Origin: Rhizophagus irregularis
Lineage: Eukaryota > Glomeromycota > Glomeromycetes > Glomerales > Glomeraceae
DNA: 64,000 nt
Reading direction: 5' to 3'
NCBI RefSeq assembly: GCF_026210795.1
Contig: NC_089434.1
Coordinates: 4,278,001 to 4,342,000 of the forward strand
The translations under genes and the position numbers were made by a program. Shown piece by piece: positions 4,712 through 62,959 of the stretch; position 1 is the first letter of the stretch; each line of letters opens with the position of its first letter. The notes below the pieces were generated by a model. The model did not search any database. It saw only the letters and a program-made list of their open reading frames with translations, and was not told the DNA's origin.

Positions 4712-6163
4712 TCTTAAAATTAGTGGTATGTAGGATAATACGTAATTCTGGCCGCCGGAATTATGTGATCGGCGTATAAATTTCCTTGAAACCAAATCTC
4801 CCATTATTTATTTTTTTGGAATGTTATGCAACATCACGTGATTTACGTGATAATTATGGGATATGGGATTGGATAAATGGGATGTGGGATGTGGGAACTG
4901 ATGTGGGATGGGATATGGGATTCTCCCAATCCCATTTATATGGGCGGCAAGTATAACCATGATATCTCATTGTCTTATTGTGATATATAATTGAATTTTC
5001 TTTAATTCCGTGAAATAACTATTACTTATTTTTCATTAATAAATGCATGATCATAAATTATATAAATTATAAGAAAAAAAATAAAACTTTGAATATTCAC
5101 GCATTTCATTAAAATTATAATTGGTAAAATATTTTTTAACGAGGGACAACAATATTTTATCACAACTACGTACAAATATGCCACATTAAGGGTTAAGAGT
5201 ATCTTAAATAGAATGTCTCCTCATGATTCTTTGATTTTAGTTATTGTCCGTTTTACAATATAAATATAGTATATTTTTTTATTATACGGTATATGTGATG
5301 ATATCGTAATAAAATATGTTTAAAGTAAAGTAAAATATTTTCAATATTTCATGTATACTTACAGTATTTGTGTATATATTTTTTTATAAAAGTAACATGT
5401 GGTGAATACAGTGTGCATTTCCTAACTGCATAATTTTTTTTTACGCCAAATAACTAATTTATACTATACTCTGTCACTCCGTTGGCGTCTTTCATTTAAC
5501 CAGTTTAAACAACTTCTTTGTCTGTAATGCACGCTTAAGACCGATATGTAATATAAATTCCTCAACTCATATGGCTAAATCATTTAAAATCAAAATTATA
5601 AATACGGAAATTTCTTTTATGTAGATCATTCATCATATAGCAAAAAAAAGAAACGATCATAGGGTAGTAAGGAGTCATGGAGAAGTGAAATTACTCAAAG
5701 TAATAACATTTATTATGTAACATCAGAGGTTTTTACCTGTGTAACAAATTAAATTACAATATTAGATCACATGATTTTATTAAGTGTAACATAAGATTTT
5801 TCGCTAATCCCGCACACTTTGTCTTTACCAAATAAGAAACAATAACAATGTTTCTTATAATCTAAGCTATATATGATTTAGTCCCATTTCATACGCAAAC
5901 CAAATTTACATAATATAAATTTTCAAGTAACAATACTTTAAAAACTGATAATATTATAACAACTAATAATATTGTTACTACTTTTTATCAACAAAGAACG
6001 CAAAATTATTATAAATATCCTTTTTTTTTTTGCTCAAGTCTACCAACAAAAAAAAAAAAAAAAGACAAAATAAAATTTCTTTTTTTAACATACCACCTAA
6101 AATTATCTCTTATCTTTTTTTCAAATAAACTTTTATTTATTAATTCTTCTCCTATTATCAATC
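4712..6163. other. Intergenic stretch upstream of the Argonaute gene
   Basis: AT-rich, without a gene. At 4740-4780 lies a small inverted motif (GGCCGCCGG...GATCGGCG). At 4855-4930 there is a run of TGGGAT/TGTGGGA repeats followed by their complement CCCAATCCCAT, which could fold into a hairpin. Long A and T tracts at 6020-6070 lie just before the Argonaute start. No core promoter element could be called with confidence. Confidence 0.5.
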
Positions 6164-9100
6164 ATGGAATTTACACCAGTTGTGAAAAGACCAAGTGTTG
6201 ACCGATCGATTAAAGTTCGAACAAACTTTTTTGAATTACTTTCAATGCCGACAAATAATATTATACATTATGATGTATCTATTACACCTGAGGTCCCTCC
6301 ACGATTTAATATGAAAATATTTGAAAGTTTCGTGGAAAAATACCGGGAAAGCCTTGGAAACGCAAAGCCAGTATTCGACGGTACGTATTCAATAATATAT
6401 ATATATATTGATACAAATATACCAATACTGAATAAAATGAAGCGAAATATCACTTCAACAAGTTATCAAAACTGTATTTCATAATTTCTTTTTATTTATA
6501 AATTAATAATGCTATATAATAACTAAATATATGCTTGTATTTAAAAGATGGAGATGGATACTAACCAATAGCAAATTGTTTGTAGGAAGGAAAAATATGT
6601 TCGCCCACAAAGTATTGTCTTTTGGGAACGCCGCCACCTTCCACGTAGACGTAAATATCTATTTTTTTTTTACTTTTTTTTTGGTTTTTGAAATTTAAAA
6701 AAAAGGGCATAATAAATTATATTTAACAAATTAGGTGATGTCGAATAAAAAGATAGTACAAACCTTTCAGATAATTATAAGAAAGGTTGGAAAAGATATT
6801 GTTATGGAGGAACTGGTACGATTTTTAAATGAAAAAAGTAGCATGACCAACAATTGCAAAACGGGTAAGTTTTTGTTATTTCTTAGTTTCTTTCTTTTTA
6901 ATAAAAATGAATCTCATAATGGATTATAATCATTTATGTAATAAGCAATAATGGCGCTGGACGTAATAATCGGTTACCAGGTTTCTACCGCAAATGTTAC
7001 TGTAGGTAGATCATTCTTTACCCAGAAGGAATCAAGTCCTATTGCTGGAGGAGTTGAAGTGTGGCGAGGATACTATCAATCCGCCCGTCCCACCAGAGGC
7101 AAAATGATGATAAACATTGACTTAAGTGCAACTGTTTTTTATCAAGATGGTCCACTTATACAATTAATAACCAAAATATTAAAACTTGGATCTCTTGACA
7201 AACTACGTAGTGGCCTTTCTGAAAGGGACCATCAAATGGTTGAGAGAACAATCAAAAACCTCAAAATAAGAGTTAACCATAGAGCCGAAACCCGAACTAG
7301 TAGTTTCAAGATTGAAAAATTAACACAAACACCCGCATCAAGTACTATGTTTGAAAAAGATGGTAATACCATCAACGTAGGAACCTATTTCCAAAACACT
7401 TACAATAAGCGTTTAATTTATCCCTTCCTTCCTTGTGTTGTTGTAAGAAGACACATTTTACTTCCTCTTGAAGTCTGCGACGTAATTCCGGTAAATTATG
7501 TGATTTATCTAGCAATATCACATAATTATAAGAATTTATTTTCTAAACAAAAAAAAAACATTTTGTATATAACAGGGTCAACGATATATGAGGAAACTGA
7601 ATGGAGGACAGATGGACGAGATGATGGCGTTAACTCGCCAGAATCCGTCCATTCGTACCAACATGATCAGAAAAGGGGTAAAAATACTAAATGACCAAAC
7701 CGAATTTATGCAACAATTCGGAGTGAAAGTATCTGATAAAATGGCCGTGGTAGGATTAAAATATGTATTATTGCGATATAGGAATAAATTATATTTTGAT
7801 TATAATTTTATTTTCAATAACACGAACAGGTGGATGCTAGAGTTCTTCCTGCCCCAACGATTATTTATCACCCGTCATCAAGAGAGAAACATATCACACC
7901 TATAAATGGAAACTGGAACTTACGTAATAAGAAACTTGCAATTGGAGCCACCCTCGGCTCTTGGTGTGTTTTGGCTTTTTTAAGCTCTGACGTTTTTCCC
8001 GATAATGTTATCTCGACATTTGTCCGAGAACTAGCGACCGTGTGTCAAGACACAGGGATGGTAAGTTAATCCATTTTTTAATGAATTTTATGAATCATTC
8101 AAGTTTCTAATTAATATTATTATAATCATAGAATGTACCAAATAAAAATCCTCCAATTTTACATGCAAATCCTCAAGGAAATATTGAGGAATCATTAAAA
8201 CAAGCATGGTTGAAGGCTGGTAATAGTGCCAAGGCCCAACCACAATTAATTTTATGTATTCTTCCAAACACGGGACAACCATTATACGCCGAAATAAAAC
8301 GTGTGAGCGACACTGTCATCGGTGTTGCGACTCAGTGTGTCCAGATTAAACATACCAGGAAGACAAAAAAACAGTATTGTGCGAACGTTTGTCTAAAAAT
8401 TAACGTGAAACTCGGTGGAATGAATTCATCCCTTAGTCCTGAACAGATTAGTTTCATATCTGACAGGCCCACTATTTTGATGGGCGCAGACGTTACCCAC
8501 CCTGCACCTGGATCTGGTAAATTTATTTTTTTTTGTTTTTTTTCCTCAAAATTATTTTTAATATATTTTTGTTTCTCTCAACTCTTTCTAGGCAACGAAC
8601 GACCATCTATCGCCGCAGTTACTGCCTCTGTGGACTCTAAAGCATCCCGTTATGCTGCATCGATCAGAATCCAAAGAGGACGCACGGAAATCATCGCCGA
8701 TTTGGGAAACATGGTTAAGGAATTGCTAAAAGCGTTTTACCAAACTTGTGGGCGAAAGCCTGAAAGAATATTATTTTATCGAGACGGCGTTTCAGAAAGC
8801 CAGTTCGAAAACGTAAAAGCTATTGAAGTAGAAGCGATTAAAAGTATTTATTACATATTCATGCTTTCGTTAATTTGATTGATTTATTTTGCTAACTTTT
8901 AATTATAACAGCCGCTTGCCATGCTCTTGACAATAAATATAATCCTACGATCACGTTTATTGTGGTGCAGAAGAGACACCACACACGTATTTTCCCAATA
9001 GATGGTGGTGATACAGATGCATCGGGCAATTGTCTTCCTGGTACAGTAATCAATACTGTTATAACCCATCCGAATGAATTCGACTTTTGTAAGTAATTTT

Positions 9101-9704
9101 AATTTACATTAACATATACAATTTATAACAAACATTAATAAATGATTTTAAAATCCTTAATAGATTTACAAAGTCACGCTGGGCTATTAGGGACGTCTCG
9201 GCCAGCTCACTATCGTGTTCTATATGATGAAAACGGCTTTAATCAAGACGCGTAAGTTAATTTTAATTTAATTTAATAAATCTAATATAGTAACTAATTT
9301 ATGTATTTAATAATTTAGGTTACAAACATTGTCGTATAACCTATGTTATTTATACGCGCGATGTACGCGTTCGATATCTTTGGTAAGATTGTAAATTGCA
9401 TTTGTTATTATTGTATGCAGTAATAGTAATAATTGTCTTATATTTAAATAGGTACCACCGGTGTATTATGCACATTTAGTTACCAAGCGAGCAAAACTCC
9501 ACGCGCGCGGCGGATCATTTAGTGATACGGAGTCCGAGGAAAGCGCAGGTGGTGCTGCGGTCGCATTTGGAGAAGTAAAGCCGGTTCTACAACGGGTAAA
9601 TATTACAAATAAATAAGCATATCAGATATCTCAAATTTATATCGTTCTTAAATATTTCATATTCTAAAATAAACTCTCCTCTTTAGGTTATGTATTTTAT
9701 GTAA
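6164..9704 (+). CDS. AGO: Argonaute protein, slicer-type, 13 exons
   Basis: Exons inferred from splice sites and frame: 6164-6380, 6586-6650, 6735-6864, 6946-7490, 7576-7749, 7830-8060, 8132-8516, 8592-8843, 8912-9088, 9164-9251, 9319-9382, 9452-9595, 9687-9704. Together they give 2490 nt, an unbroken 829-residue protein, close to the usual eukaryotic Ago length. All introns are GT-AG; the first has a TACTAAC branch-like site at 6559-6565. The N-terminal and L1 regions include ALDVII and VGRSFF; PAZ follows around residues 195-325 ([16 protein letters not shown]); MID begins near 378 ([11 protein letters not shown]); PIWI runs to the end ([38 protein letters not shown]). The DEDH slicer tetrad is complete by my count: D574, E615, D647, H784, with the same spacing as animal Ago proteins within one residue. 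The C-terminus VMYFM matches the buried YF-x end of Ago. It should bind small RNAs and cleave paired targets. Splice sites were assigned by eye. Confidence 0.93.
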
Positions 9705-30554: not shown

Positions 30555-31471
30555 TTTTTATTTTTATTTTTATTTTATTTTACTTAGAAGGCGTGAATAC
30601 ATCGTTTAGTTACAGACTTGTTATGACTACAAGGCACAATATAAGTACACAGCTAAACTAGACATACAAATCCAACGGGCGGACCCACCCTTCGTTAGAA
30701 CGAACTGGGAAACATAGTCGCCATAGCAGTGAACGAACAAAGAAATTAGAAACTAAAGTAAAAATAGGGGACGCGTACCGAGAAGAATTAATTAAAGAAG
30801 AACTATCTATGAAAACAGAAAGTCTAGCGAATGATACCACGGTAAGTTATGAAGGAAATTTGAAGAGGTAAAATAAATCCACATGACGGTAATGTCAAGG
30901 ATGCGTCTATCATCGCCATACGGACATCGATACTGCCAAGGCGATTGTGTAGGTTGTCGTTGTGAGTGATCCCTCGAGGGTGACGAATATGTGTTTGTCT
31001 ACGTCGGTAGTTTTGGAAGGTCTTTTTAGATATGATTTCCATTCTTTGAATTTTGAGTTACGTGTTTTCCAAATAGTGTTGTAGATTTCAACGTGTAGAT
31101 CATGAACGAATGATAATAATAAACGTTTGATACGCTTCTTTGATTTAATAGCCGCTTGAAAAGGTGCTAAAAGTTCGTTTGGAATATAATTAAGTAAAAA
31201 AATCAAATAAATGTTTGTTTAATAAAATTTCTGACATCGGTTTTCGAGTCCAAGAAAATATGGCACAAAATCCGATAGCAACTTGCCAAGTACAAGCTGG
31301 CGAATCGGCATTCGCTTGTAATTTGATAGCAAAGTTGTTGAATATAGTAGGTATTAATAAAGTGATTGCTTCCGGGCATTGCCATAGATGAAGATTAGAC
31401 TCGTCTTCCATATTACATAAGAAACACGTTTTTACGCCTTGCGTGATATCAGGGTAATTTTTATTCATGGT
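30555..31471 (-). mobile_element. 5'-truncated LINE with 16-bp target duplication
   Basis: On the minus strand the element starts inside the C-terminal coding part (31468-31190: C-x2-C, ESNLHLWQCP zinc-binding tail), continues with a helical block (31206-30910: NTIWKTRNSKFKEWKSYL), then a 3' region, and ends in an (AAAAATAAA)n tail (about 30583-30555 on the plus strand as T-rich sequence). AACTCAACAATTAAGT is present on both sides (30539-30554 and 31472-31487). This is the classic target-primed reverse transcription signature. Only the last ~0.9 kb of the LINE was copied, so it is inactive. Confidence 0.85.
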
Positions 31472-31487
31472 AACTCAACAATTAAGT

Positions 31488-34466
31488 ACCGGGAAATTTT
31501 TCTAGGGGATATGTATTAATGAAAAGGTCGCATAACATACATCGATATTAATCGGACTCATCGAGTAATATCAATATGGATAAGTAGTGATAAATTATCT
31601 GAATTTAACCTAAATGGATATATCGATAAAAATCACGTCGAGTAATATCAATATGGTTAAATAGACAATAATCATCAGTAGCGTTAAATAACATTAGTTT
31701 ATTAAATAATATTAAATTATTTTAGCATAATTTTTATTACATTAATAAATTAATAAAATAAATTAATCAATCTATACTAAATCTATATACTAATCCCAAA
31801 AGTAAACGGTTAAAGTTAAGTTTTGCAAGGAAACTTTCTAATTGGATCCTTCAAAACCTAAAGAAAAACAAAAAAATGTTAAATGATTGTTTTGTTGAAA
31901 ATATATATATATATGTTTTTTAAAAAACAAGCCCGATATCTACCTTGAAAGAAATACCGATATCCACCTTCCCTGTAAAAAATCTGATCTGTGTTTTATC
32001 TTACCATTTTCACGGAATTTTTACGGAAGACACGGAGAAATAATGGAAATATTCGGATAAAAATTTTTTATAGGGCTTGAGAAATGAAGAATCGACCATT
32101 TAAAAAAAAGAAAAATAATGAAATGTTAGTAAATGCTTTGTTAAATAAATTTTTTAAAAAAAAATTTACCAATGTGAACTTCCCATGCGTTATTGTCAAG
32201 AGATACGGCCGTCTAAAAAAAAAAGAAAGATAACGAAATGTTAATAAACGTTTCGTTAAAATAAGTAAATTACAACTTCTGAAATCTACAAATAAATTAA
32301 TTATAGATTAAATAAGTGCTAGGCCACAAAAAGATTAATGAATTGGTTACCCTTTTGACATATTCAATTATGCATAATTTTAAATTTTTGTATGTTTTGT
32401 CTAAAAAAAAAAAGATTAATAAAAATATTTGTACAAGCAGTAGATTATCTAAACTATATCAATTTGATAATTTACCTGAACATATTTGATATTTTAATCA
32501 AATTCTCTTTTCTAGTTGATGATTTCAATAAATCAAATCTAGAATAATGTGCATCAAAAATAAACAGTATTGTTAGTATTAAAATATTTCAAAAATTGCA
32601 TTTAGGATTAAGAGATAGTAAGTAATTAATATACATAAATATAAGTATATTTTTTTTAACTATGACTAATTTAATTATATGTAAATTTTTCGGATAATCG
32701 AGTTAATTATGAAAAAGATTTTGTAAAACAGAAAGTAAAGAAATAAAATGTTGATAGTATGCTTCTTTATTAAAAAAGATAAATATATTACTTCATTATG
32801 GAACTTATGAAATTTGATCCTTTTCAAAAGATTCTTTTATCTCCAGATTTTTTATTTTATTTTATTAAATGAAGAGGGTCGCAAGAGTGAGTGATACATG
32901 AGTAAATTACAAAAATACTACGCTTTTGTCTTCAGATGTATAATTGATTACACGTGATCAGGATACGATGTGATTGCTTGGAAAGATTCCTCGTGACTAA
33001 ATTTTTTATAAACTTTGGATAATTTGAATATTATCGTTATTATTGGATCAGAATCATCATAATCCACATGATATGTCAAAAAAAAAGATATTTCTATTGA
33101 GGATCAGTTAGATCAGATAATAAAAAAATTTTCAATTAACAAAATCAAAAGTTATATCTGGAGGTGATGAAAGTTTACGTCTGCAGGGATGAGTAAAATA
33201 TAACTAAAATAAAAATATTCGACAAGTCACGCATGAAATATTAAGACATCCGTTTCATAGTCTACATCGAGTGTTTTCTCCTAATATACGTTTGTGTAGT
33301 ATTAAGGAAAGAAAATTATGTTATCGTTACTATCGAATGATATTTAAGATCACGACGATGTAAATATCAATTAAATTTTGAAATTTTCGTCTTCATCGTG
33401 AAAATTTGTTATTATATATAGTTTTTAGATAAAATACTTGGCAAGTTCTAAAACAGGAATGATGAGAATGGGGCGAGTATGTATTATGATCGGAAAAGAT
33501 GATATTTTCTTAAAAAGATTATTACATACATAAATGATATATCCGTCCCATCTGTTCTACTTCGAGTTATCATGAATAAAAAGAAAAGAAATAATAATTT
33601 TGCGTCAGCGGCGGACACAATTGTAAAGCAGTTTTGCGTGATGCAGGTTATGAGAATTTAAATTTTTTCATCCTAGCATAAAAAAGTCGCATGTCAATCA
33701 CTCGAATTAAAACTCTAATTATGTCATTACTTCAATTCATTATGTAAAAAATTAAAATGTCCTCTTTCTCAAATAAACGATCGGGAACTGCCGATGATCA
33801 TTATTTTCACACAACCGAGTAATTGACCCAAATGAATTCCAATCATTCCAATCAGTTAACGTAAATATTCTATTGATTGTTCCACGAATTAACTTATTAG
33901 ATATGTATAATAACTTTTTAAAACAGCCTTTATTTTACGTTAAGGTGATGTAAATATAATTGTTTTTTTTTTCTCATCCCGGAAGGACGGAAAATATCTA
34001 CAATAAAAAATTTAAATTACAAAGGATGATGATTATTGGAATTTATATATAATGACAATCGTAAGAATTTTTACCGGCCCGTATTTCTACTCACCCAATT
34101 TCTAAATAAAAAAAAAATTTAAACCATATGTCTCAGTTGTCTCACGTTATTTATAAATAATCGTGTTACGATCACGTCTTCAAAAGTTTTATGAATTGCT
34201 AATTAATTCACGCCGAACTTATGATGATATTCTGTTTCCTAATCGGTTTTTATTTTGTTAAATTTAAAATCAATTATAAACAAAATTTGTAAATAGGTAT
34301 AAAGAACAATTTAAGGGGAGATCACCAAAGATATCTAAATATGAACGATCCTAATTTGAATTTGAACATGATATAAAATCAAACCGATTGAAAATAATAT
34401 TTTCCCATTTAAGATCTATATTCATCATCCAGAACAAACATCGTCCTGAACAACCGCCATCAATTA
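31488..34466. other. Gene-free stretch with 115-bp units and a small inverted-repeat element
   Basis: 31850-32290 contains units of the same kind as 56350-57900: hairpin (A/C)GAAATGTTARTAAAYGYTTYGTTAA near 32121 and 32236, and a minus-strand exon-like module at 32212-32170 between CTTTTTTTTTTAG and GTAAAT. At 31971-32076 a 106-bp element starts CCCTGTAAAAAATC and ends AAATTTTTTATAGGG, related to the CCCTATAAAAAAT element at 12511. 32300-34460 has no recognisable gene; two segments (33180-33310 and 33470-33600) look loosely alike. Confidence 0.5.
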
Positions 34467-35565
34467 TTATTCGTATTCATCATAATCCTCAGATTCGGTA
34501 TCCACTTGGTTATTTTCTTTTGCATATTTCCATAGATCTGTATAGATAACTTTCCTAAATTTAATACTAGCTTCTCGGCATTTTGCGATCTTCATGATTA
34601 TTTCTCTCTCGATATTCTCTGCCATTAGTCTCGCAAACATACAAACAAATACTCCACAAGAACTTCCATCTACTTGCGGAGGGTCTCTATTTCGAAACAT
34701 TATATCCAACGAAAAATCAACTTGACGGTTCAAATTTATCTCTTCAATTACGTTCGAGTCATATTCACACGCAATTCCCTTACCCAACTTAACTTTATGA
34801 TTATATTCGTCATTCAACCAATTGATGAGATTCCCCCCAATAATGACGGCATCTTCTGTTGTTACCATCCCTAGTGAATCAAAGATAGCAATTCTAAACT
34901 GTTCCTTCATAAATATTGCGGCTAAGATCCAATGTGCCTCATTTAAATTAATTGGAATAAAGATAATATCTTTTTGAAAAATTTTAATTCTTTTTGTCCA
35001 ATGCTCGACAGAAGAATATTTGTATCCGTCATTTTTTGTTAACTTTGTATAAAAAAATGATGTAAGAGAAAATACACGATGAAATTTCGTATTCAAATAA
35101 GAGAGGTAGGCATTTATATGATCAGAAGAAAACCAAATATGTTTGTCACATAATTCATATAATTTTTCTGCCGTTATAGATTCGGAATTAATATATATAA
35201 CATCGTGATTGTTGTCTTCATTTCTTCTCAACCATTTCAACACTTCTAATCGGGTACTTTTTTCATAATTAAAAATTTCAGAAACTTCAGGAATTCTTTC
35301 TACTCTGTAGTAATGGTTGCTTCGTTGTCTTGTCGATCTTCTGAAGTTATAAACGGGTGGCGTACTCGTACTACTTGTACTAATTTTAAAATAAAAATTA
35401 TTTGTAAATAAAGTTAAAATACATTTTTTTTTTAAGAAACAAACAATAAGTTTTGGATATAATTAATTACCTTTCATAATAATCATTACTTGGCGTCGTA
35501 TCTTCGACAGTCAGTTCATCACTAGCCATTATAGCGTTATCCGTAATATCATAAAGGTCTGACAT
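34467..35565 (-). CDS. Ulp1-like (C48) cysteine protease
   Basis: Two exons on the minus strand, 35565-35471 and 35379-34467, joined across a GTAATT...TTAG intron, give a 335-residue open protein starting MSDLYDITDN. The C-terminal two thirds is a Ulp1/SENP-type domain. Catalytic residues by my count: His181 (NEAHWILAA), Asp199 (AIFDSLG), Gln267 (PPQVDGSSC) and Cys273 (GSSCGVFVC). The N-terminal 75 residues are acidic then Ser/Thr/Arg-rich and probably disordered; the C-terminus is acidic (DTESEDYDEYE). Such enzymes process or remove SUMO or a related modifier. The same fold is also carried by some transposons (Ulp1 domains in MULE/KDZ-type elements), but no transposase lies nearby and the gene has a normal intron and intact catalytic set. 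Which modifier it cuts cannot be read from sequence. Confidence 0.85.
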
Positions 35566-36883: not shown

Positions 36884-37880
36884 ATTACTAAACGTTGCCT
36901 GGGTGATTGTCGCCTGGGTTTTTTTTTTCAAATATGTTACATGATGTACAATATATAGAGTAAATTTATTAATCGGGTGATGGCTGATTTTTTCTAATTT
37001 TTGATCGGTTAAACTTAAAATTTTATTGCAAAAGATATTTTTAAAAAAAAATTTTTTTGCAAACATATTTATTCAATAATCTTATTTAATGAAATTTTAA
37101 AGAAAAAAATCACCATTACATCATATTTATTTTTATTGAAGTGATACAAATAAAAGAAACAATAACAATAAATAAAAAGGATAAGTAAATTACAAAGATG
37201 CTAATGATGAAAGGGAGTAAAAAAGAGTAATGAGAAGTGATAGGAAACAAAAAGGAAAAATAGGACATGATGAGAGATGAAAAAGAGTGATGGGAAACGA
37301 AAAGAAGTGATGGGAAGATGAAGAATGATGGAAGATGAAGAATGATGGAAGATGAAGAATGATGGAAGATGAAGAATGATGGAAGATGAAAAGGAGTGAT
37401 GAGAGACAAAAAGAAATGATGGGAAGTAAACAGGAGAAAAAGAGATAATGGAAAATGAAAAGATGTAATAGAAAATAATGGGAGACAAAAAGATGGAATA
37501 ATGAGAAGTAATGAGGTGAAAAATGATGAGAGACAATAAATAAAAAAACACCCTTATTAATTGTAGAACCGAAAGAACTAAAAAAAAATGGAATAAATTA
37601 GTGAAAAACGAAATATGAAACAGAAACAAAATAAAAAAAAAAGAGTAAGAAACGAAACGTAGTGAAAAACAACTGAACCTTAATTGCAGAACCGGAAGGA
37701 CTAAAGGACCTAAAAATAATGAAATAGAGTTAGTAAGAAACAAAGTGTAAGAATGTAAGTTAGAAATAAAAATAAAAGAAAAAAGAAAAATACCTTGAGA
37801 TCGAAAGAACCGAGGAAACTGAAAACGAGATTCACGTGATCGAAGACCAGGCGATGATCGCCCAGGCGATGTTTAGCAAT
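36884..37880. mobile_element. 1-kb terminal-inverted-repeat element with polypurine core
   Basis: The left end 36884-36918 (ATTACTAAACGTTGCCTGGG...) matches the reverse complement of 37847-37880 (ATTGCTAAACATCGCCTGGG...) over about 34 bp; all differences are transitions. Termini share ATTGCTAAA with the foldbacks at 23390 and 30226. The core (about 37190-37840) is almost pure purine on the plus strand, including a 17-bp tandem repeat AATGATGGAAGATGAAG at 37314-37395. Minus-strand frames over the core (Phe/Ser/Leu-only) are composition artefacts. The right end abuts a kinase remnant, so the element probably inserted into or beside that gene. Confidence 0.7.
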
Positions 37881-38340: not shown

Positions 38341-38459
38341 ATAATTTGACTTTAAATAATTTGAACACAATATTCACAATATATGGAGGCCAAAACAACT
38401 TTTTTTACAATTTCCACAAGGTCTTGTTTGTAATTGTACTAGAAACGTTTTTTAACGTT

Positions 38460-38700
38460 TCGAATTTTTTTTTTAAAAAAAAAATTTATCGGAACGTTAA
38501 CTATACCGTTCTATTGTTAAAAAAAATCCCAGAAAATTTTTTTATACATACCGATCTATTTATTAAAAAAAAAATCCAGAAAATTTTTTTATATTTATCT
38601 ATTGTACCATACCGACCTATTATTATTAAAAAAAAAATTCTGGAATTTTTTTATACCGATTTATTATTAATGTTACTGGGAACAAAAAAAAATTTTGCTT
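38460..38700. repeat. Degenerate tandem repeat, CCAGAAAATTTTTTATACC family, second locus
   Basis: Three or four copies of A-tract plus (C/T)CCAGAAAATTTTTTTAT plus ACCGATCTATT lie near 38520, 38573 and 38630. Same family as 9830-10310. The frame 38235-38708 (+) spans it and is not a gene. Confidence 0.65.
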
Positions 38701-43100: not shown

Positions 43101-44049
43101 TTATGACATCACCAATTTCATTCATTAATTATAATTCTTCAAAAAAAACATCTCCAACTATTAACGATCCTTCAAATAAATCAGATTCTGATTCACATTA
43201 CTTTCCGGTGCACCACCCTTACGACCTCGTTTTAACCGTTCCACCACACTTCCAAATCTTCATTTATCATCTGAAAATAAAGAACCAAAAATTTTTACCT
43301 ATTCCGAAATCAACTTTTTTTTACTTACCCCTTCCACTTCACCTTGCGCAACGCCTACTACAATGTCAACTTCGTTACCAAATATGTCAGAATCACTGAA
43401 TCACTAAATATTAACCCTCCACCTTTAAATGAATTGAAAAAATCCAAATCAGCAAATTCATTGAGTTGTAATTTAGGACCTAATGTTTTAGTGGTTGAAG
43501 ATAATGCAGTTAATAGAACGATTTTAACTACATTTTTGAAAAAACGTGGGATTAGGTTTGATGAAGCTGAAAATGGAGCTATTGGAGTTGAAAAATTTAA
43601 AAAAGCATTAGAAGATGATGATGGAGAAAATCCTAATCGAAAAGGATTTGATATCGTATTAATGGGTAAATCCTTATTCTTTTTTTTTTTAGTAAACCTA
43701 CGTACATGTGTATTTAATTAAAAGGAAATATATTTTAATATATATATGGTTTTTTTTTATTTGTAGACATACAAATGCCTGTAATGAACGTGTAGCAACA
43801 GCAGAAATACGTAAAATTGAAGATGAACAACAATCCGAAATTTTCATTATTATCGACAGCAATAACAACAAATTCAACACTCGCTAAATCTCCAGCTGCA
43901 TCATCTACAATTACAAATTTTAAATTTCCCCCATCATCATTATTTAACAAAACTATTCCATCATCTCCAGTTTCAGAATCAAATAATCATTTAACCCATT
44001 TACTCAAAAGAATAGATTTTTACAAAGAAGAGTATCAAATCATGATCCA

Positions 44050-55093: not shown

Positions 55094-55704
55094 CGAATGA
55101 GAAAGTTAGAGTTTAAGTTTAAAATATTTTTCTTGAAATCATTCACTATATATATATAATTTTATGATATTAAAACTTTTGAATAGGTTGATTTCGATTT
55201 AATTTAGAAATTTGTTATAAAATTTGTAAATTTCCGCTTAACAGTTAACCAATAACAAATGTTTTAGGTTGTTACTAAAAAATTGGTTATATGTAACACA
55301 ATTTTTTTAGTATATATACTGTATATAAATAAACAGGTTTGATTCGAGAACTGAGCGCGTGATCCAAAAAAATTTTTTCGGAATCAACTCCATGAAGAAT
55401 CAATATATGATAATATATAAAAACAGTTTTATTTATTTATTTATTTAAAAAAAATAAAATTATAAATTTGGTTATTAGTTATTAATTTAATTTTTGTCTT
55501 TATGGAATACTGCCGCTCAAATTATAAAATCGGATTTAAGGTTTCACGGGTATTATGGTTTTTATTCTTTTAAATGCCCCTTAAAAATGCAGGGCTTTCT
55601 TCTTATAGATGTGATAAACCTTAACTGTTAAATAAATTATAAATAATTGGTTTAGTTGATAATCGATCAACAGAATTGCGGCGCAGCAACTTTCTTTGCG
55701 ATTA
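55094..55704. other. Upstream region of the membrane-protein gene
   Basis: AT-rich, with a small inverted motif around 55250-55295 (TTAACCAATAAC...GTTACTAAAAAATTGGTTA). No gene. Confidence 0.4.
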
Positions 55705-55916
55705 CCCTTCAAAAATGTCACGAAAATTCACGTGACTGTTTTTTTGTCACATCCGTCACACCCTTCCTTGTTTCCATTTTTCATAAGTATCTGAGGGACT
55801 TTGTTTTTTTCGAGTAAGTAAAAACGTATTCGTCACACCCTTATTCGTCACTGTTTATTTTCACGTGTTAGTGCATAACGCCGTAATGCCGGCCGTTTCG
55901 TGACATTTTTGAAGGG
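55705..55916. mobile_element. Miniature inverted-repeat element, TA target site
   Basis: The 212-bp element has perfect 21-bp inverted termini beginning CCCTTCAAAAATGTCACGAA and is flanked by TA on both sides (55703-55704 and 55917-55918), as expected for Tc1/mariner-like insertion. The interior contains TCACACCCTT and CGTCAC words repeated. A decayed relative lies at 35855-36012. No coding capacity. Confidence 0.8.
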
Positions 55917-56349
55917 TACGCAGGGGTAGTCCTTTCTTTGCTTACAACTTAATAAATTAATATTACAATAACTATTGTACGATGTCCCTACAAGACCAAT
56001 AACGAGCATCTCATTGATTTGGTTTGTATATAATGTACTGTAATATCAATTTTAAAATACATTTAAAAAATTTTAACATGTATATTTAATATAAATTGTA
56101 GCAAATTATTGTATAATTTAATTATAAAATAAATTGTATAAAATTACATTTGTAACTTTAATTATAAAATACATTTCCTCTATCCTCATTTAAATACTCC
56201 TCTCTTTCCTTTCAACCAAGTTTCTTCTCTCTTTTTTTTTCTTCGTGCAGTCACTTTGCATCCCATAAGCGTTCATTTCTCCACCATTCTCCGTCTTTTT
56301 TTGATATAGTCGCCAATACTATTAAAGAAAAACTTTAACTAGAAAAAAG
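55917..56349. other. Gene-free AT-rich stretch
   Basis: No gene; a pyrimidine-rich segment at 56170-56300 borders the tandem array. Confidence 0.4.
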
Positions 56350-57900
56350 AATGAAGCATTAGTAACTATTCGTTAATATAAACTAAAGATAAATCTGAAA
56401 ACCAACACGTTCAAAGAGATCCAGAGAAACCTGAAGAGCTGGCTACCTAAAAAAAGAAATAATCCAATGAAAGTCTTCCTCAAGGATCGAAACTAAATTC
56501 TACGCGTCTATACACGGCTAGAAAAGCAAAACGAAATGTTAGTAAGAATTTCGCTAGAAAAGTAATTCAAAGAAAAGAAAATCTATCGAATTCCCATGCA
56601 ACAAATACCTGAAGAACAATCCGTCTAAAAAAGAGAGAAACAATCAAGGAAAAATTTAAAATGCGAGTAGTAATCCCACTAAATTAATGCGAATTTACGC
56701 GTCAAAAAAAAAAAAGAAAATTTTCCGAATTTCCACATCTAAGATCCGACTAAAAATGAAAAAGACGAAATGTTAGATTAGTTAAAATTAATAAAATTAA
56801 AAATAAACATGAACATCTTCCGATTTCTTACCAAGAAAAATCTCCAAATTCACTCGTCCATACTCGCCTAAAAAAAGGAAAAGAACGAAATGTTAGAAAT
56901 ATTTCGTTAACGTTAAATAAAAAGATTAAAAAACATTCATTTTCCCACCGTCTAAAAAAAGAAATTTTCTGAATTTTACCAAAATCCATACATCCAAGCC
57001 TATAAAAAAAAGAATAAAATTTGGAATGTCAAAATACGTTTCGTTAGAATAAATAAACTAAAACAGAGAAAAAACTTACCAAAAATGAAATTCTGCGTTT
57101 CGTTAAAGAAAGAATCCCCTACCGAAATTCTGCGCGTCCAAGGACTTGAGTGCTTATAAAAAAAGAGAGAAAATCGAAACTTTAGCAAGACGTTTCGCTA
57201 AAAGAATAAATTAATAAAAATATATATTTCGGAATCCCTTACCGACTGGAAAATCGAAACGTTAGTAAAACGTTTCATTCATTAAAAATATAAATTAAAA
57301 AAAAAAATTCAGTTAAATCAAATAAATAATAGTTCTTTTCTTATTCATATATATTAAATATATTTGGGCTAACCAGACCAGTTGTTTTCAAAGATTCAGG
57401 CAATTTGCTGTATTTCGTTTACCTAGTATAAAGAACTCAACGTGTCCAAAGACCCAGTCGCCCTAAAAAAAAGAGAATATTGAAAGGTTAATAAAATGTT
57501 TCATAAATTCAAAGAAAAGTTCCGATAAAGAGACGGACACACTTCCATTTCCAAAGAGAATTGGCAAACCCTAAAAGAAGAAAAAACGAACTACTAATAA
57601 AGTTCGTTAAATAATAAAATAAAAGAAAAAACAAAAAACTATCATACCAGAATCCCATATCCAAAGAGATAAAAGAAAGTAAACGAACTGTTAGAAACTG
57701 TTCGTTAAAACAGAATTAAAAAAAAAAATTGAATAACAAAATTCCTACCTTATTTCCACGCGTCAAAATAGCCGAAGAATCAAGTCGTCTAAAAAAAGAA
57801 GAGAAACAACTATTAGAAATCGTTCGTTAAAATAAAACAATTAAAGAAAAAAGACAAACTTACCGAGAGATAACTAAGATTTTTTTCAACAAAAAGTGCG
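56350..57900 (-). repeat. Tandem array of ~115-bp units resembling micro-exons
   Basis: Stem-loops of the type ACGAAATGTTAG-n-CGTTTCGTTA recur near 56350, 56530, 56764, 56884, 57029, 57174, 57254, 57477, 57586, 57682 and 57803, spaced about 115 bp or a multiple. Between them, read on the minus strand, lie short GC-richer modules preceded by C(T)nAG and followed by GTAAGT-like donors. The clearest are 57788-57749 (40 nt), 57462-57423 (40 nt), 57152-57123 (30 nt), 56999-56980 (20 nt) and 56867-56832 (36 nt), with a donor also after 57864. Modules share a core like TTGGACGCGTGGAATTCG. Some units have lost a splice-like end. The same units occur at 31850-32290. Either this is a minisatellite with splice-like words or a transcribed gene with many tiny exons; I could not follow a continuous reading frame. 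Confidence 0.6.
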
Positions 57901-58041
57901 AGAGAAGCGGGAAAAGAGAAAGAAAAGAAAAGGGAAATGTAAAAGTAAAGGGAAAGGGGAAGGAAAGGAAGAGGAAAGAACGAGGGAGAGACGAAGGTAC
58001 GAAGGGGAGGGCGGAAGAATGAAAAAAAAAGTTTAAAATAG
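57901..58041. repeat. Purine-only tract
   Basis: 57900-58035 is almost entirely A and G on the plus strand (GGGAAAGGGGAAGGAAAGGA and similar). It separates the tandem array from the LINE. Confidence 0.7.
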
Positions 58042-59275
58042 TTGATCGAACATTCGGGCTGCGGATTATATCACGTGATACACGTGATACATAATATAAA
58101 TAGGGGCTTTCCCCGAAATTTTTTCATTTATGTTATTGATCAAAATATACGAAAATGGAGTAACATTCCTATCCAAGCACACGTATTCAATTCTTTGGTC
58201 AACAATTCGGCCTCAAACGGTAGAACGAAATATACTAGAGGGAGACAGACTGGAATTACATCAAATTATGGTTCAACCATAATCCTTATGACGTACCCAC
58301 AAACGAAAAATTATCTCGCGCTCAAGGTACTCGCATTAAGAAATTGAGTTTCATTTACCCACAGTTCAATAAGCCAAGATTTTTTTTTAAAGATCGTTTC
58401 ATACTCTACGGCGGATGTTTTCCAACGCACGCAATTGTCCTACGCAATTATCCTAAACTTTATCCCAGCGGTCCTATTATGTGTGACTGTAGCACCACTC
58501 ACTTTAATAAATCAATTCCACTTTACAGAAATTCAAACCCATCCTACTTAACATTATCAACAAACACGCTACCGGTTTAATCTTTGACTTACAACATAAG
58601 ATCGAAACTTCAAGAACATTCAACCTTGCAAATACTAATGCTCTATCTATTGGTCACCCATGCTACTTACTCATACACCAATTATGCCTGCCGATCTTAC
58701 GACCTTATTTTACAACTACACCGGCAAACAAAAAGCCCGTGACACGGCCTTCAAAGAATTTATTATCCCGTTCATGCAAGAACTAAACTCCGTTATTTGG
58801 ACGGAACGTGCTAGCAACTTTAAACAATGGGAAACAACACAAGGAATCACAAAGAAAAAAAAGAAGCGCTACCACCAATTTTTTAAACATGATCGTAAAG
58901 AAACCTCCAGAATCAACATCGCGAACCAAACCAATCTCCAATCTCGTCGTAACCATCCTCTTTCTATCCCGTACGATAGATCAGATGGACGCTTGGCTTA
59001 AATGCCCACATCGATGGACGTCTAGTAATTTTTTACAGAGTTTAATAGTTTTTTTTATGATTTGTTTTTATTTACTTATAATCCTACCAATATAGCTAAA
59101 GATTGTTCAATTTCTCAGTTCCTTTTTCTTTTACCTCGGCTGTGTTTTTATAGCATCCCTGCGGCTTGGTTATCAGTTTTTTTTGGTTACTCTCGATTCT
59201 AGTATTTAGTTTCTTTGTAACTTTTGGTGTAACTTCGTTCAATTTGAGAAATGAAAATAAAAAATAAAAAATAAA
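58042..59275 (+). pseudogene. LINE retrotransposon 3' half
   Basis: After a TCACGTGATACACGTGATAC palindrome, frames read GRTKYTRGRQTGI, then NPYDVPTNEKLSRAQGTRIK, FIYPQFNKPRFFFKDRF, and after slips SIGHPCYLLIHQLMPADL and FMQELNSVIWTERASNFKQW. These correspond in order to the LINE at 46738-48015 and to the tail at 30555-31471. The 3' end is an (AAAAATAAA)n tail near 59248-59275, as in 30555-31471. Reverse transcriptase is missing and several frame breaks occur, so it is a dead 5'-truncated copy. No target duplication was found. Confidence 0.7.
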
Positions 59276-59693: not shown

Positions 59694-61132
59694 CTAATTC
59701 CAATTTTGAAACACATTACGTTCTTCATTTTTTGTTATAATAGTCATCATCTGATTCACATCACTATCATCTGATCTATTATCACCTGGTTCATAATCAT
59801 TATCGCTACTTTCTTCATGACTTTCATCATCTGCTTCAATTCCTCTCTCTTTATTATTTATTTTTTGTACTCTATTAAAATTAAATCATATTCCGTCCAT
59901 TCATCGCATTTGAAACACCACAATATTTAAATGAACGCATAATCAATTGCATCTCAACTTTCTTTTACCCAATTTGCTACAAGTGAGTATGATGGTCTTT
60001 TAATTTTTCCAGATGGGGTATATTCTTTAATAGCTTCATTATTCATCCAGTAATCATAAAGATGTCGCATCTAATTTTATTAAAATAATATTAATTTTAT
60101 ATTATATAGCAGAAAAAATTTGATGAATGAAATTTACCTTAGCTTTAAAAGGTTATTTAATGATACATCAAGTAACGAGAAGTTAATCCACCTGGAATAA
60201 CAGCCAAATCAGTATTTTTTCTATGAAATCGACGTTTTATAGCATCAGTTTTGTGAAGAATTTAACACTAAAAGAGATCTTGAGTTGCTTCCTTGTTTTG
60301 CACGTTGTGTCTAAGTATTTTCTATCCACCAAGTCATCTCGTCTTCATTCATTCAACCATTGGGATTAGCACGAACAATTACTCCATCAGGAAAATCCTC
60401 TCGCGGAACATTTACAAAGTTTGAAGTTTGAAAATAATTACTTGCGGCAATTTTTCACCATTAGCCATACAAGCTAAACAACAGTAAAATTTGCGTTCAT
60501 GCCAGTAGATAAAATAGCAACAGATTTTGTACCACGATGTTCAACTGTTGTGTTGCTTGGTAAATTAAATGCTATAGGTGTTTAATCCATATTTGCAATT
60601 AAAGATAATGGATATTGATGCTCTCTTCTACGAAAAAAAGGACGTAAGATAAAAATTGATTTGTTGCCCAATATAATCATCTGGAAGTCGCTGAGCAATT
60701 GTTATTTTTCTTCTACTGACTAAATTATGACGGGGCATAAAACCATTAACCCATTTCTGTGAAAACTTTTGATATACCGGTTTTTTTTGCTAAAGAGCGT
60801 GCTTTTGCCTGAATCATATAACGCGAAATTGTTTTCAATTGCCTTCATGAATCTCTAAACCATTCTATTAATTCAGTTTCGAGCTGTTGGTATTTTGGAC
60901 GTGCACCTTGAACAAGTTTTCGAACATAGGGAGCTACTATCATAAGTTGATCCTTATTTTTCAACCAGTTACGAAGTTGTTTTGGTTCAATCTCAAATTT
61001 ATCTGCTGTTGATCGTTTGCTATGACCTTGCTCATAATATGCGATTACTATCAACTTCTCTCTTGCTGACCATTGACGTCTCTTTTTCTGTGAAATTTTG
61101 GCACGGCGAGCTCTAAAATTTCCACGAACCAT
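59694..61132 (-). pseudogene. Pogo/Tigger-type DDE transposase
   Basis: On the minus strand from 61132 a 95-codon frame starts MVRGNFRARRAKISQKKR and holds a Psq/CENP-B-like helix-turn-helix: WSAREKLIVIAYYEQG, STADKFEIEPKQLRNWLKN. After stops and slips, recognisable blocks continue: KARSLAKKTGISKVFTEMG, SLIANMD-stop-TPIAFNLPSN with the conserved NMD-x-TP box (first catalytic Asp), GTKSVAILSTGMNANFTVV, VIPGGLTS-like sequence, NNEAIKEYTPSGKIKRPSYS, and an acidic tail (ADDESHEESSDNDYEPGDNR). The order fits a DDE_1 (pogo) transposase of usual size. At least four in-frame stops make it inactive. A piece of the same family lies at 44050-44400. Confidence 0.85.
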
Positions 61133-62959
61133 AGTGTTTAATAAATTTTTAATTAATAAAGTCTTTAAATATATATAGACTTTAAAAAATATTTATCAAT
61201 TAATATCTTGAAAGTTTATTTGAAACAAATTATCTGTAAAAATTTATTAGAAAAAAGATACGATAAAGAAATAATTGCAAGACGCGAAAAATAAGTTGCT
61301 ATAAATTCTAATATTCCATTTTCCCATGATTGGTAAAATAATCTTCATTCTTCAAGTGAATAAAATCCTCTAAAAGCATTTTCTAATTTTATTAGTTGTA
61401 ATTGATGAATGTGTTGTTTGGTAATAAAAGATAATTTCCAGAGACCCACTTATCAAATATACTGTTTAAAATATGATGTATTATTACAATTTTCCCAGAC
61501 ATATAAAATTGCAACCTCTAGGTATAATATCCAGGGGAAAATTGCCTAGCTTAGACGATACAATCATCCCGGGAAATTTTTCTTAATAAAATAAAAGTCG
61601 TAGAATGTGATCATTTTCATAAAAAATAAACGTGCAGGTATACAAGAGTTGTAGAAAGTTTCGTTCCAATATAAGATATATAATAAAATTGTGTCGTACG
61701 AATAAAGTGTAATTTGTAAATACTACTGACGCAGAGGAATCTTGTACAATAATCCATTAAATATCAATTAAAATTTAACTTACTTGTAAATACTCAACGA
61801 AGCCTCAAATTATAAATATTCATCATTTGTCTACTTTATTATTTGTTTCATCATACTTTCGTCCAATTTAATAATAAATCTTAATAATGGGATTAATAAT
61901 GGGATTTGTGATAACATATATAAAAGCTCTATATTTTACAACTAGTAATAATAATGAAACATATTCTAGCAAGGAGGCTGGCTGACTTAAAGATTATTCA
62001 GTCAATGTAACTTCACGTCATTATCTTTCGTGACAGCTAAAAAAGTGATTTCTTCCGCGGATATACTCTTTATTCTCTCTGGTCTAAAGATGGATAAAAC
62101 ATAATTCTACAGTACATAGCCTTTGCGAATGCTCCATCAGATTTTTGCCCACTGTCTTGTAGCTCATTATCAAATAGAAACACTTTTTCTTTAAAATTAT
62201 TTCATTGCATTGGGTTGAAACCACACTATCGGTAAGTTGACTATTTCATTCTCTTGTCATGTTGATAATTGATACGAACGGGTTGGAAAAAAAAGTTTAA
62301 AATGAATTTTCTTTCCATTTTGATCAATAAAAAATATGTGATATAAATAGAGATAACGTCAAATAGTTAAAAGATATATATTACTGGAACTTGTGAATGT
62401 AGAAGTTGTCGGTACATTATAGCAAAAAGAAATCAGAGAACTATTTTGCGTAAAAGAAATTCATTAAAGGTTAGAAAAATGCTACATATAAAAAATTTCT
62501 TTAAAAAAACCTATTCCATGTTGTGAAAGCATAATCATGTGGTTATGGTCATGATAATCGGCAAATCTCATTACCCAATATGATAGATAGCGTAGCCATG
62601 TACTTTCGTTCTTCACGTTGTTTTGAAATTTCCATAATGGACATACCTTTCACCTTTAAAATAACTACAAAGCCTAGTAAATAAAAGAAATTTTATGTTA
62701 ATTTTTTTAAATACTATAATTTCGTAGTTAGCGCTTTTGTTCAAATCAAAATCAGCAGGTGCGAAAAACTTTGGATTAACTCCAGAATCAAAAGAAATAC
62801 CTCAAAAGTAAATAAAGAATTTTACTTGGTAAAGCCTTTATGATTTCGTCACGAGGATCATGTTGCATTATAGCCTTCGTATGTTAAGGTCAGAAAGATG
62901 TAACTTATTCTAATGAGGATCAGCTGTTAAAAGTTCGTTAGAACTAGATAGAACTGGTT
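61133..62959. other. Gene-free AT-rich stretch
   Basis: No gene or element boundaries recognised. Short hairpins such as TAAAGTCTTTAAATATATATAGACTTTA near 61158-61187 are visible. Confidence 0.45.

What the first reader, a model, noticed from the sequence alone, without database searches (positions are those of the whole stretch)
56350..57900. Tandem ~115-bp units that look like an array of micro-exons with stem-loop introns
At least ten units share a perfect or near-perfect stem-loop (CGAAAYGTTAG paired with CGTTTCGTTA) and, on the minus strand, a 20-44-nt module bounded by C(T)nAG and a GTAAGT/GTAAGA/GTAGGA-type donor. The splice-like ends are conserved along with the module core, which is more than a plain satellite needs. 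It may be a gene built by tandem exon-intron duplication, a multi-exon noncoding RNA, or a small-RNA source from the hairpins. This is the least explained structure in the window.
Basis: partly seen in the sequence, partly recalled or inferred. Interest (0 to 1): 0.72.

Follow-up and report, generated by a model that had tools for sequence, protein, structure and literature searches.

The report
Tandem array of hairpin-bearing intron-like units
A stretch of AT-rich eukaryotic DNA carries about eleven old tandem copies of an intron-like unit in which a small RNA hairpin surrounds the likely splicing branch point; it shows no sign of coding for protein, looks partly decayed, and three more copies lie 25 kb away.

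Summary
The array is real, minus strand, about 11 units (56334-57835). A typical unit reads: donor G|GTA, small hairpin enclosing a branch-point-like word (YTRAY in 12 of 14), T-tract, AG, short exon-like stretch. Three more copies lie at 31858-32264. The best conserved part is the intron's 3' end, not the "module core": mean pairwise z 3.73 hairpin, 1.36 T/AG, 0.77 upstream, 0.60-0.97 exon (units were found by the hairpin, which favours it). AG directly ends the pyrimidine tract in 9 of 14 against 7.4% of background tracts. Arms covary modestly (2 of 500 shuffles; 48-298 of 20000 permutations). No coding signal: 121 codons against 109 in shuffles (18 of 60 as long); Argonaute control passes. 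Several units lack acceptor, exon or donor. Best reading: an old tandem duplication of an intron with a micro-exon, now non-coding and partly decayed. Whether the hairpin shows or hides the branch point is open: of 8 stable hairpins the branch A is unpaired in 3, paired in 4, and one has no such word. Transcription and splicing are untested; no relatives were found in the collections I could search.

The parts
57788..57835 (-). unit u1: hairpin (5 of 8 consensus pairs), T-tract; AG at 57790-57789
   Evidence: (47.8 bits)
57664..57713 (-). unit u2: 7 of 8 pairs, loop columns GTTTCTAAC; no acceptor AG found
57571..57615 (-). unit u3: 8 of 8 pairs, no YTRAY word in the loop, T-tract, AG
   Evidence: (z -3.72)
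57463..57512 (-). unit u4: weak hairpin (5 of 8 pairs), T-tract, AG
57246..57287 (-). unit u5: hairpin (7 of 8), CAG; only 3 nt before GTAAGG
57153..57206 (-). unit u6: 7 of 8 consensus pairs but folds in another register, word CTAAA, T-tract, ATAAG
57000..57052 (-). unit u7: decayed hairpin (3 of 8 pairs), T-tract, ATAG
56868..56915 (-). unit u8: 8 of 8 pairs, loop ATTTCTAAC, T-tract, AG
56750..56801 (-). unit u9: 5' arm largely lost, CTAAC, T-tract, AG; fails leave-one-out
56518..56562 (-). unit u10: 8 of 8 pairs, loop with TTACTAAC, AG
56334..56382 (-). unit u11: weak hairpin (5 of 8 pairs), AG at 56340-56339
57749..57788 (-). exon-like stretch, 40 nt, followed by GTAGGA
57423..57462 (-). 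exon-like stretch, 40 nt, followed by GTAAAC
57123..57152 (-). exon-like stretch, 30 nt, followed by GTAGGG
56980..56999 (-). exon-like stretch, 20 nt, followed by GTAAAA
56832..56867 (-). exon-like stretch, 36 nt, followed by GTAAGA
57864..57911 (-). possible first, non-coding exon ending at G|GTAAGT behind a CT-rich tract; its start is a guess
   Evidence: sequence read by eye; donor; inference
31858..32264 (-). second cluster: v1 (32264-32216), v2 (32149-32101, no AG), v3 (31903-31858, fails leave-one-out)

Best explanation
An ancient tandem duplication of one spliceosomal intron plus a short flanking exon, read on the minus strand, now in a non-coding or pseudogene transcript that has partly decayed. 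Proposed mechanism: in each pre-mRNA unit a short hairpin forms around the branch-point word, 15-28 nt before the AG, and sets how readily U2 reaches it, so that each short exon is joined or skipped. Whether the stem presents or gates the branch point is open and may differ between units. Shown here: order, strand and spacing of the signals, stronger conservation of the intron 3' end than of the exon, modest covariation of the arms, no coding signal. Inferred: transcription, splicing, any role of the hairpin, the ancestral gene.
For: Acceptor-like and donor-like words enriched on the minus strand only. 12 of 14 units have an AG behind a pyrimidine tract; where a branch-point word was scored (11 of these 12) its A lies 15-28 nt before the AG. 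AG directly ends the tract in 9 of 14 against 7.4% of 2356 background tracts (units are related, so the printed 1e-7 is too strong). 11 of 14 have both that AG and a G|GTA donor 75-177 nt upstream of it (counted). G precedes GTA in 11 of 19 array cases against 17% in the window. Hairpin z 3.73, exon 0.60-0.97 over 91 pairs. Covariation score 0.172 against 0.096, 2 of 500 shuffles; own arms pair better than swapped arms, 48, 128, 294 and 298 of 20000 in four variants. Fold z of the last 60 nt: mean -1.07 for 12 units, u3 and v1 below -4; ten Argonaute introns (borders by eye) -1.44 to 1.50.
Against: No RNA data. u2 and v2 lack AG, u5 has almost no exon. Five of 11 array stems keep only 3-5 of 8 pairs. 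RNAalifold predicted no pairs on the same alignment, and I chose the counted structure by eye on it. Pairs with double changes (51/500) and pair types (273/500) do not clearly beat shuffles. In the 8 units that fold at -4 kcal/mol or better, the branch A is unpaired in u1, u8, u10, paired in u2, u5, u6, v1, and u3 has no word, so a loop that always shows the branch point is not supported. One Argonaute intron has the most stable hairpin of all, -9.3 kcal/mol. The units were found by their hairpins and zones differ in length, which favours the hairpin z. Donor-like words stand 10-100 nt upstream of 11 of 14 hairpins but also of 46% of random places; GGTA is as frequent or more so in some other stretches.
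Confidence: 0.5

Rival explanations
1. Divergent satellite: a non-genic tandem repeat whose 25-nt palindromic box is kept for a DNA-level reason (protein binding, recombination); splice-like words are relics or by-products.
For: Head-to-tail order, spacing mostly 81-153 nt or about twice that; lost splice parts; no coding signal; a lone hairpin very like u5 but without AG at 38434-38475 on the plus strand (32 bits; sequences side by side).
Against: The recurring features are directional and splice-like: T-tract plus AG, G|GTA and the branch-point word on one strand. AG is kept where the bases behind it are near random (12 units chosen for having AG).
Confidence: 0.25
2. Introner-like element: the intron itself multiplies and has seeded tandem and dispersed copies.
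For: Second cluster 25 kb away and the lone hairpin at 38434; fungal introner-like elements are described with stable secondary structure or inverted repeats (PMC8469720, passages).
Against: Similarity does not cover the whole intron (upstream z 0.77); some exon pairs are related too (u7/u9 6.4, u5/u6 5.5, u8/u10 5.0), which suggests exon and intron were duplicated together.
Confidence: 0.13
3. Living protein-coding micro-exon gene.
For: Short exon-like stretches, some open in one frame (read by eye).
Against: Longest splice-aware ORF not longer than in shuffles (18 of 60 as long; 49 of 100 in the first version); lengths 40, 40, 30, 20, 36 nt differ in phase; no Pfam family at E 0.1 for the two open frames scanned there.
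Confidence: 0.05
4. Source of hairpin small RNAs.
For: Repeated hairpins; an Argonaute gene lies in the same window.
Against: Stems of about 8-9 bp, -0.8 to -8.6 kcal/mol in the ten units folded, short for Dicer substrates (recalled).
Confidence: 0.03

Closest known systems
Tandem exon (exon-intron) duplication (recalled)
   Same: Head-to-tail copies of a unit with an exon and an intron
   Different: Here the exon is the least conserved part and shows no coding signal; the intron 3' end is best conserved
Fungal introner-like elements and sister stwintrons (PMC8469720, PMC12403724; passages)
   Same: Families of related introns with inverted repeats that can pair in the RNA
   Different: Those are similar across the whole intron and sit in different genes; in the stwintrons the paired 10-nt elements lie near the two ends, with the branch point far inside. 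Here the arms stand directly on either side of the branch-point word, and copies are clustered
Micro-exon genes of schistosomes (recalled; PMC5825161 seen only in the listing)
   Same: Runs of very short exons
   Different: Those code for proteins; here phases differ and no ORF stands out
SP7-like effectors of arbuscular mycorrhizal fungi (PMC11333574; section 6 and passages)
   Same: Considered because the window resembles such a genome to me; SP7 proteins have imperfect repeats
   Different: The Y[KR]Rx[AP]x[AP] motif is absent in six unspliced frames; the paper stresses a conserved intron before the first repeat, and I saw no mention of one intron per repeat

Membership tests
Tandem exon-intron duplication | Several homologous head-to-tail units | tested here: met
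   (12 of 14 supported)
Tandem exon-intron duplication | Each unit has donor, branch point and acceptor | tested here: inconclusive
   12 of 14 have AG; 11 of 14 also have G|GTA 75-177 nt upstream of it; 12 of 14 have YTRAY
Tandem exon-intron duplication | Exons homologous among units | tested here: inconclusive
   mean z 0.72 global, 0.97 local, controls -0.16 to 0.22; 16% and 22% of 91 pairs above 2
Tandem exon-intron duplication | Units are transcribed and spliced | not testable with these tools
   no RNA data held
Introner-like elements | Similarity across the whole intron | tested here: not met
   upstream 40 nt z 0.77 against hairpin 3.73
Introner-like elements | Copies at independent sites in unrelated genes | not testable with these tools
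   no genome held; one second cluster and one lone hairpin in the window
SP7-like effectors | Y[KR]Rx[AP]x[AP] repeat motif | tested here: not met
   0 matches in six unspliced frames of both loci; spliced products not scanned
Protein-coding micro-exon gene | Long spliced open frame | tested here: not met
   121 codons against 109 +/- 40, 18 of 60 as long; Argonaute 469 against 176 with any AG, 247 against 53 with the array's acceptor rule, 0 of 60 each
Known structured RNA (Rfam) | Match above gathering score | tested here: not met
   0 matches in the window

The most novel reading that the evidence does not exclude
A family of introns that multiplied in tandem and by dispersal with a self-contained, structured acceptor module: a covarying hairpin wrapped directly around the branch point, then T-tract and AG. 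In some copies the branch A is free in the loop, in others locked in the stem, so that an array of micro-exons would be a graded series of open and gated splice acceptors on one non-coding transcript.
Probability: 0.15. Interest if true: 0.72.

Novelty: new variant of a known kind. Interest (0 to 1): 0.42.

Why it matters
If spliced, it would be a natural series of related introns with the branch point enclosed by intact, weakened and broken stems side by side. That would let one ask directly how structure at the branch point affects splicing, and how tandem intron arrays arise and decay. If not spliced, it is a diverged repeat with misleading splice-like words, a warning for gene prediction in AT-rich genomes.

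Tried and rejected
Relatives: blastn of 56300-57950 against plasmids and phages gave no match at E 1e-5. Hairpin patterns gave 6 viral and 8 bacterial or archaeal contig stretches with one match each; five of the six viral ones share one sequence. With the unit model the best of them scored 29.1 bits (E 0.0037, L013, with a second hit of 19 bits); ten hits up to E 1 in all. I take them as chance from their short contexts. No eukaryotic collection was available.

Other copies in the window: the model matches its own 14 rows by construction. It gave one further hit above 30 bits, 38434-38475 plus, as high as u9. The next hit has 22.7 bits.

Coding: splice-aware ORFs with shuffled controls. The first version missed the ATAAG and ATAG acceptors. 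The array uses pyrimidine-tract acceptors; Argonaute was run with any AG and with the array's rule. Plus strand of the array: 29 against 48 codons, 57 of 60 as long.

Exon comparison: the first donor rule was too loose and gave mean z -0.02 over 66 pairs; replaced by 45 nt from AG. For u2 and v2, without AG, the start was set by eye.

Literature: 10 searches, passages of six papers, plus section 6 of PMC11333574. In what I saw, nothing describes such an array; this is no proof of absence. PMC10234402 passages were not used.

Organism: an arbuscular mycorrhizal fungus is my guess from recall, not a test.

Full report
The window is AT-rich (GC 22-34% in 2-kb steps) eukaryotic DNA with an intron-bearing Argonaute gene, a Ulp1-type peptidase, a CENP-B-like domain and a response-regulator match below Pfam's cut-off. 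No genome is held for it. An arbuscular mycorrhizal fungus as source is my guess from recall.

Observation. On the minus strand, 57835 to 56334, eleven related units follow one another. A model of these and three more scores them at 32-57 bits by construction. Leave-one-out scoring against 60 shuffles of the array supports 12 of 14 (at most 3 of 60 as high) and fails for u9 and v3. The other three lie in a second cluster, 32264-31858, same strand, which aligns to the array over 197 columns at 66%. Spacings are 81-153 nt, or 181-246 nt where a unit may have been lost. A further hit on the plus strand, 38434-38475, closely resembles u5 but has no AG.

Anatomy. In transcript sense: G|GTA donor, T-rich stretch, TAACGAA-like arm, loop with branch-point-like word, TTCGTT-like arm, pyrimidine tract, AG, short exon-like stretch. 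YTRAY stands in the loop columns of 12 of 14; u6 has CTAAA, u3 none. Of 8 pairs, 3 of 11 array units form 8, 3 form 7 and 5 form 3-5; v1 7, v2 5, v3 6. Ten units folded range from -0.8 to -8.6 kcal/mol. AG behind a tract is present in 12 of 14; the branch A lies 15-28 nt before it in the 11 where the word was scored. 11 of 14 have AG and a G|GTA donor, giving candidate introns of 75-177 nt. Argonaute introns, borders by eye, are mostly 65-90 nt.

More than chance, and one-sided. Donor-like words 11 against about 3.8, acceptor-like 14 against 2.45; plus strand 1 and 1. Four of the 11 donor-like words are not at places that I use. G stands before GTA in 11 of 19 against 17%, but other stretches of the window reach 12 and 21 GGTA, and donor-like words upstream of hairpins (11 of 14) compare with 46% at random places.

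What is conserved. Over 91 pairs the mean alignment z is 3.73 for the hairpin, 1.36 for T-tract/AG, 0.77 upstream, 0.60 for the exon zone; 0.72 global or 0.97 local for 45 nt from AG, random sets -0.16 to 0.22. Units were found by their hairpins and zones differ in length, so the contrast is somewhat inflated. Aligned at AG in the 12 units that have it, the bases before it are mostly T or C and those behind it soon become near random. AG directly ends the tract in 9 of 14, AT in 4 (u6, u7 and u9 with AG a few bases on), AA in 1; background AG is 7.4% of 2356 tracts. The printed 1e-7 treats related units as independent.

Structure. Covariation score 0.172 against 0.096 (2 of 500), cells paired 77.3% against 71.8% (1 of 500), cells with double changes 7 against 3.4 (13 of 500), pairs with double changes 4 against 2.4 (51 of 500), further pair types 7 against 6.6 (273 of 500). 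Swapping whole arms: 48, 128, 294, 298 of 20000 in four variants. RNAalifold predicted no pairs. This is modest support for a selected stem. The branch point is not simply shown in the loop: of the 8 units folding at -4 kcal/mol or better the branch A is unpaired in u1, u8, u10, paired in u2, u5, u6, v1, and u3 has no word. Of ten Argonaute introns nine give fold z of -0.83 to 1.50; one has a different, strong hairpin (-9.3 kcal/mol, z -1.44); the 12 array and cluster introns average -1.07.

Coding. Longest splice-aware ORF in the array 121 codons against 109 +/- 40 in 60 shuffles (18 as long); second cluster 53 against 54 (25 as long); Argonaute 469 against 176 with any AG and 247 against 53 with the array's acceptor rule (0 of 60 each). 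By this test the array is not protein-coding.

Mechanism. I propose tandem duplication of an intron with a short exon in a minus-strand transcript, the hairpin setting access to the branch point. Single-stranded branch sites go with splicing in Arabidopsis (PMC7784297, passages), while locking a branch point in a ligand-bound aptamer inhibits splicing (PMC2275289, passages); both are possible here, and differ by unit in the predicted folds. Lost acceptors, donors and exons say that the array is at least partly decayed.

Comparison. It works like a run of introns. Membership in introner-like elements fails on whole-intron similarity and is untested on insertion sites. The SP7 motif is absent in unspliced frames. 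Rfam gave no match.

Noticed in passing
6101-9690 +: Argonaute gene with ArgoN, ArgoL1, PAZ and partial Piwi matches; the end is my reading. Used as control.
   Followed up: partly
38434-38475 +: Lone hairpin very like unit u5, followed by a T-tract but no AG (32 bits).
   Followed up: partly
55703-55918: Perfect 23-nt inverted repeat with 170 nt between the arms, near the array; MITE-like.
   Followed up: no
58639-58998 + and 30913-31218 -: Two open frames near the two clusters are similar (25% identity, E 2e-4 in a one-to-one blastp); by eye they resemble LINE remnants; no Pfam match.
   Followed up: partly
34467-35462 -: Ulp1-type peptidase C48 open frame (E 1.1e-22).
   Followed up: no
60845-61192 -: CENP-B-like DNA-binding domain (E 1e-10), perhaps from a transposon.
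   Followed up: no
43281-43718 +: Response regulator receiver match, E 1.2e-4, 22.6 bits, below Pfam's cut-off of 30.2.
   Followed up: no
1713-1755: Short interstitial run of TAACCC, telomere-like.
   Followed up: no
37302-37390: Tandem repeat of a 17-nt unit, 5.1 copies, 97% matches.
   Followed up: no
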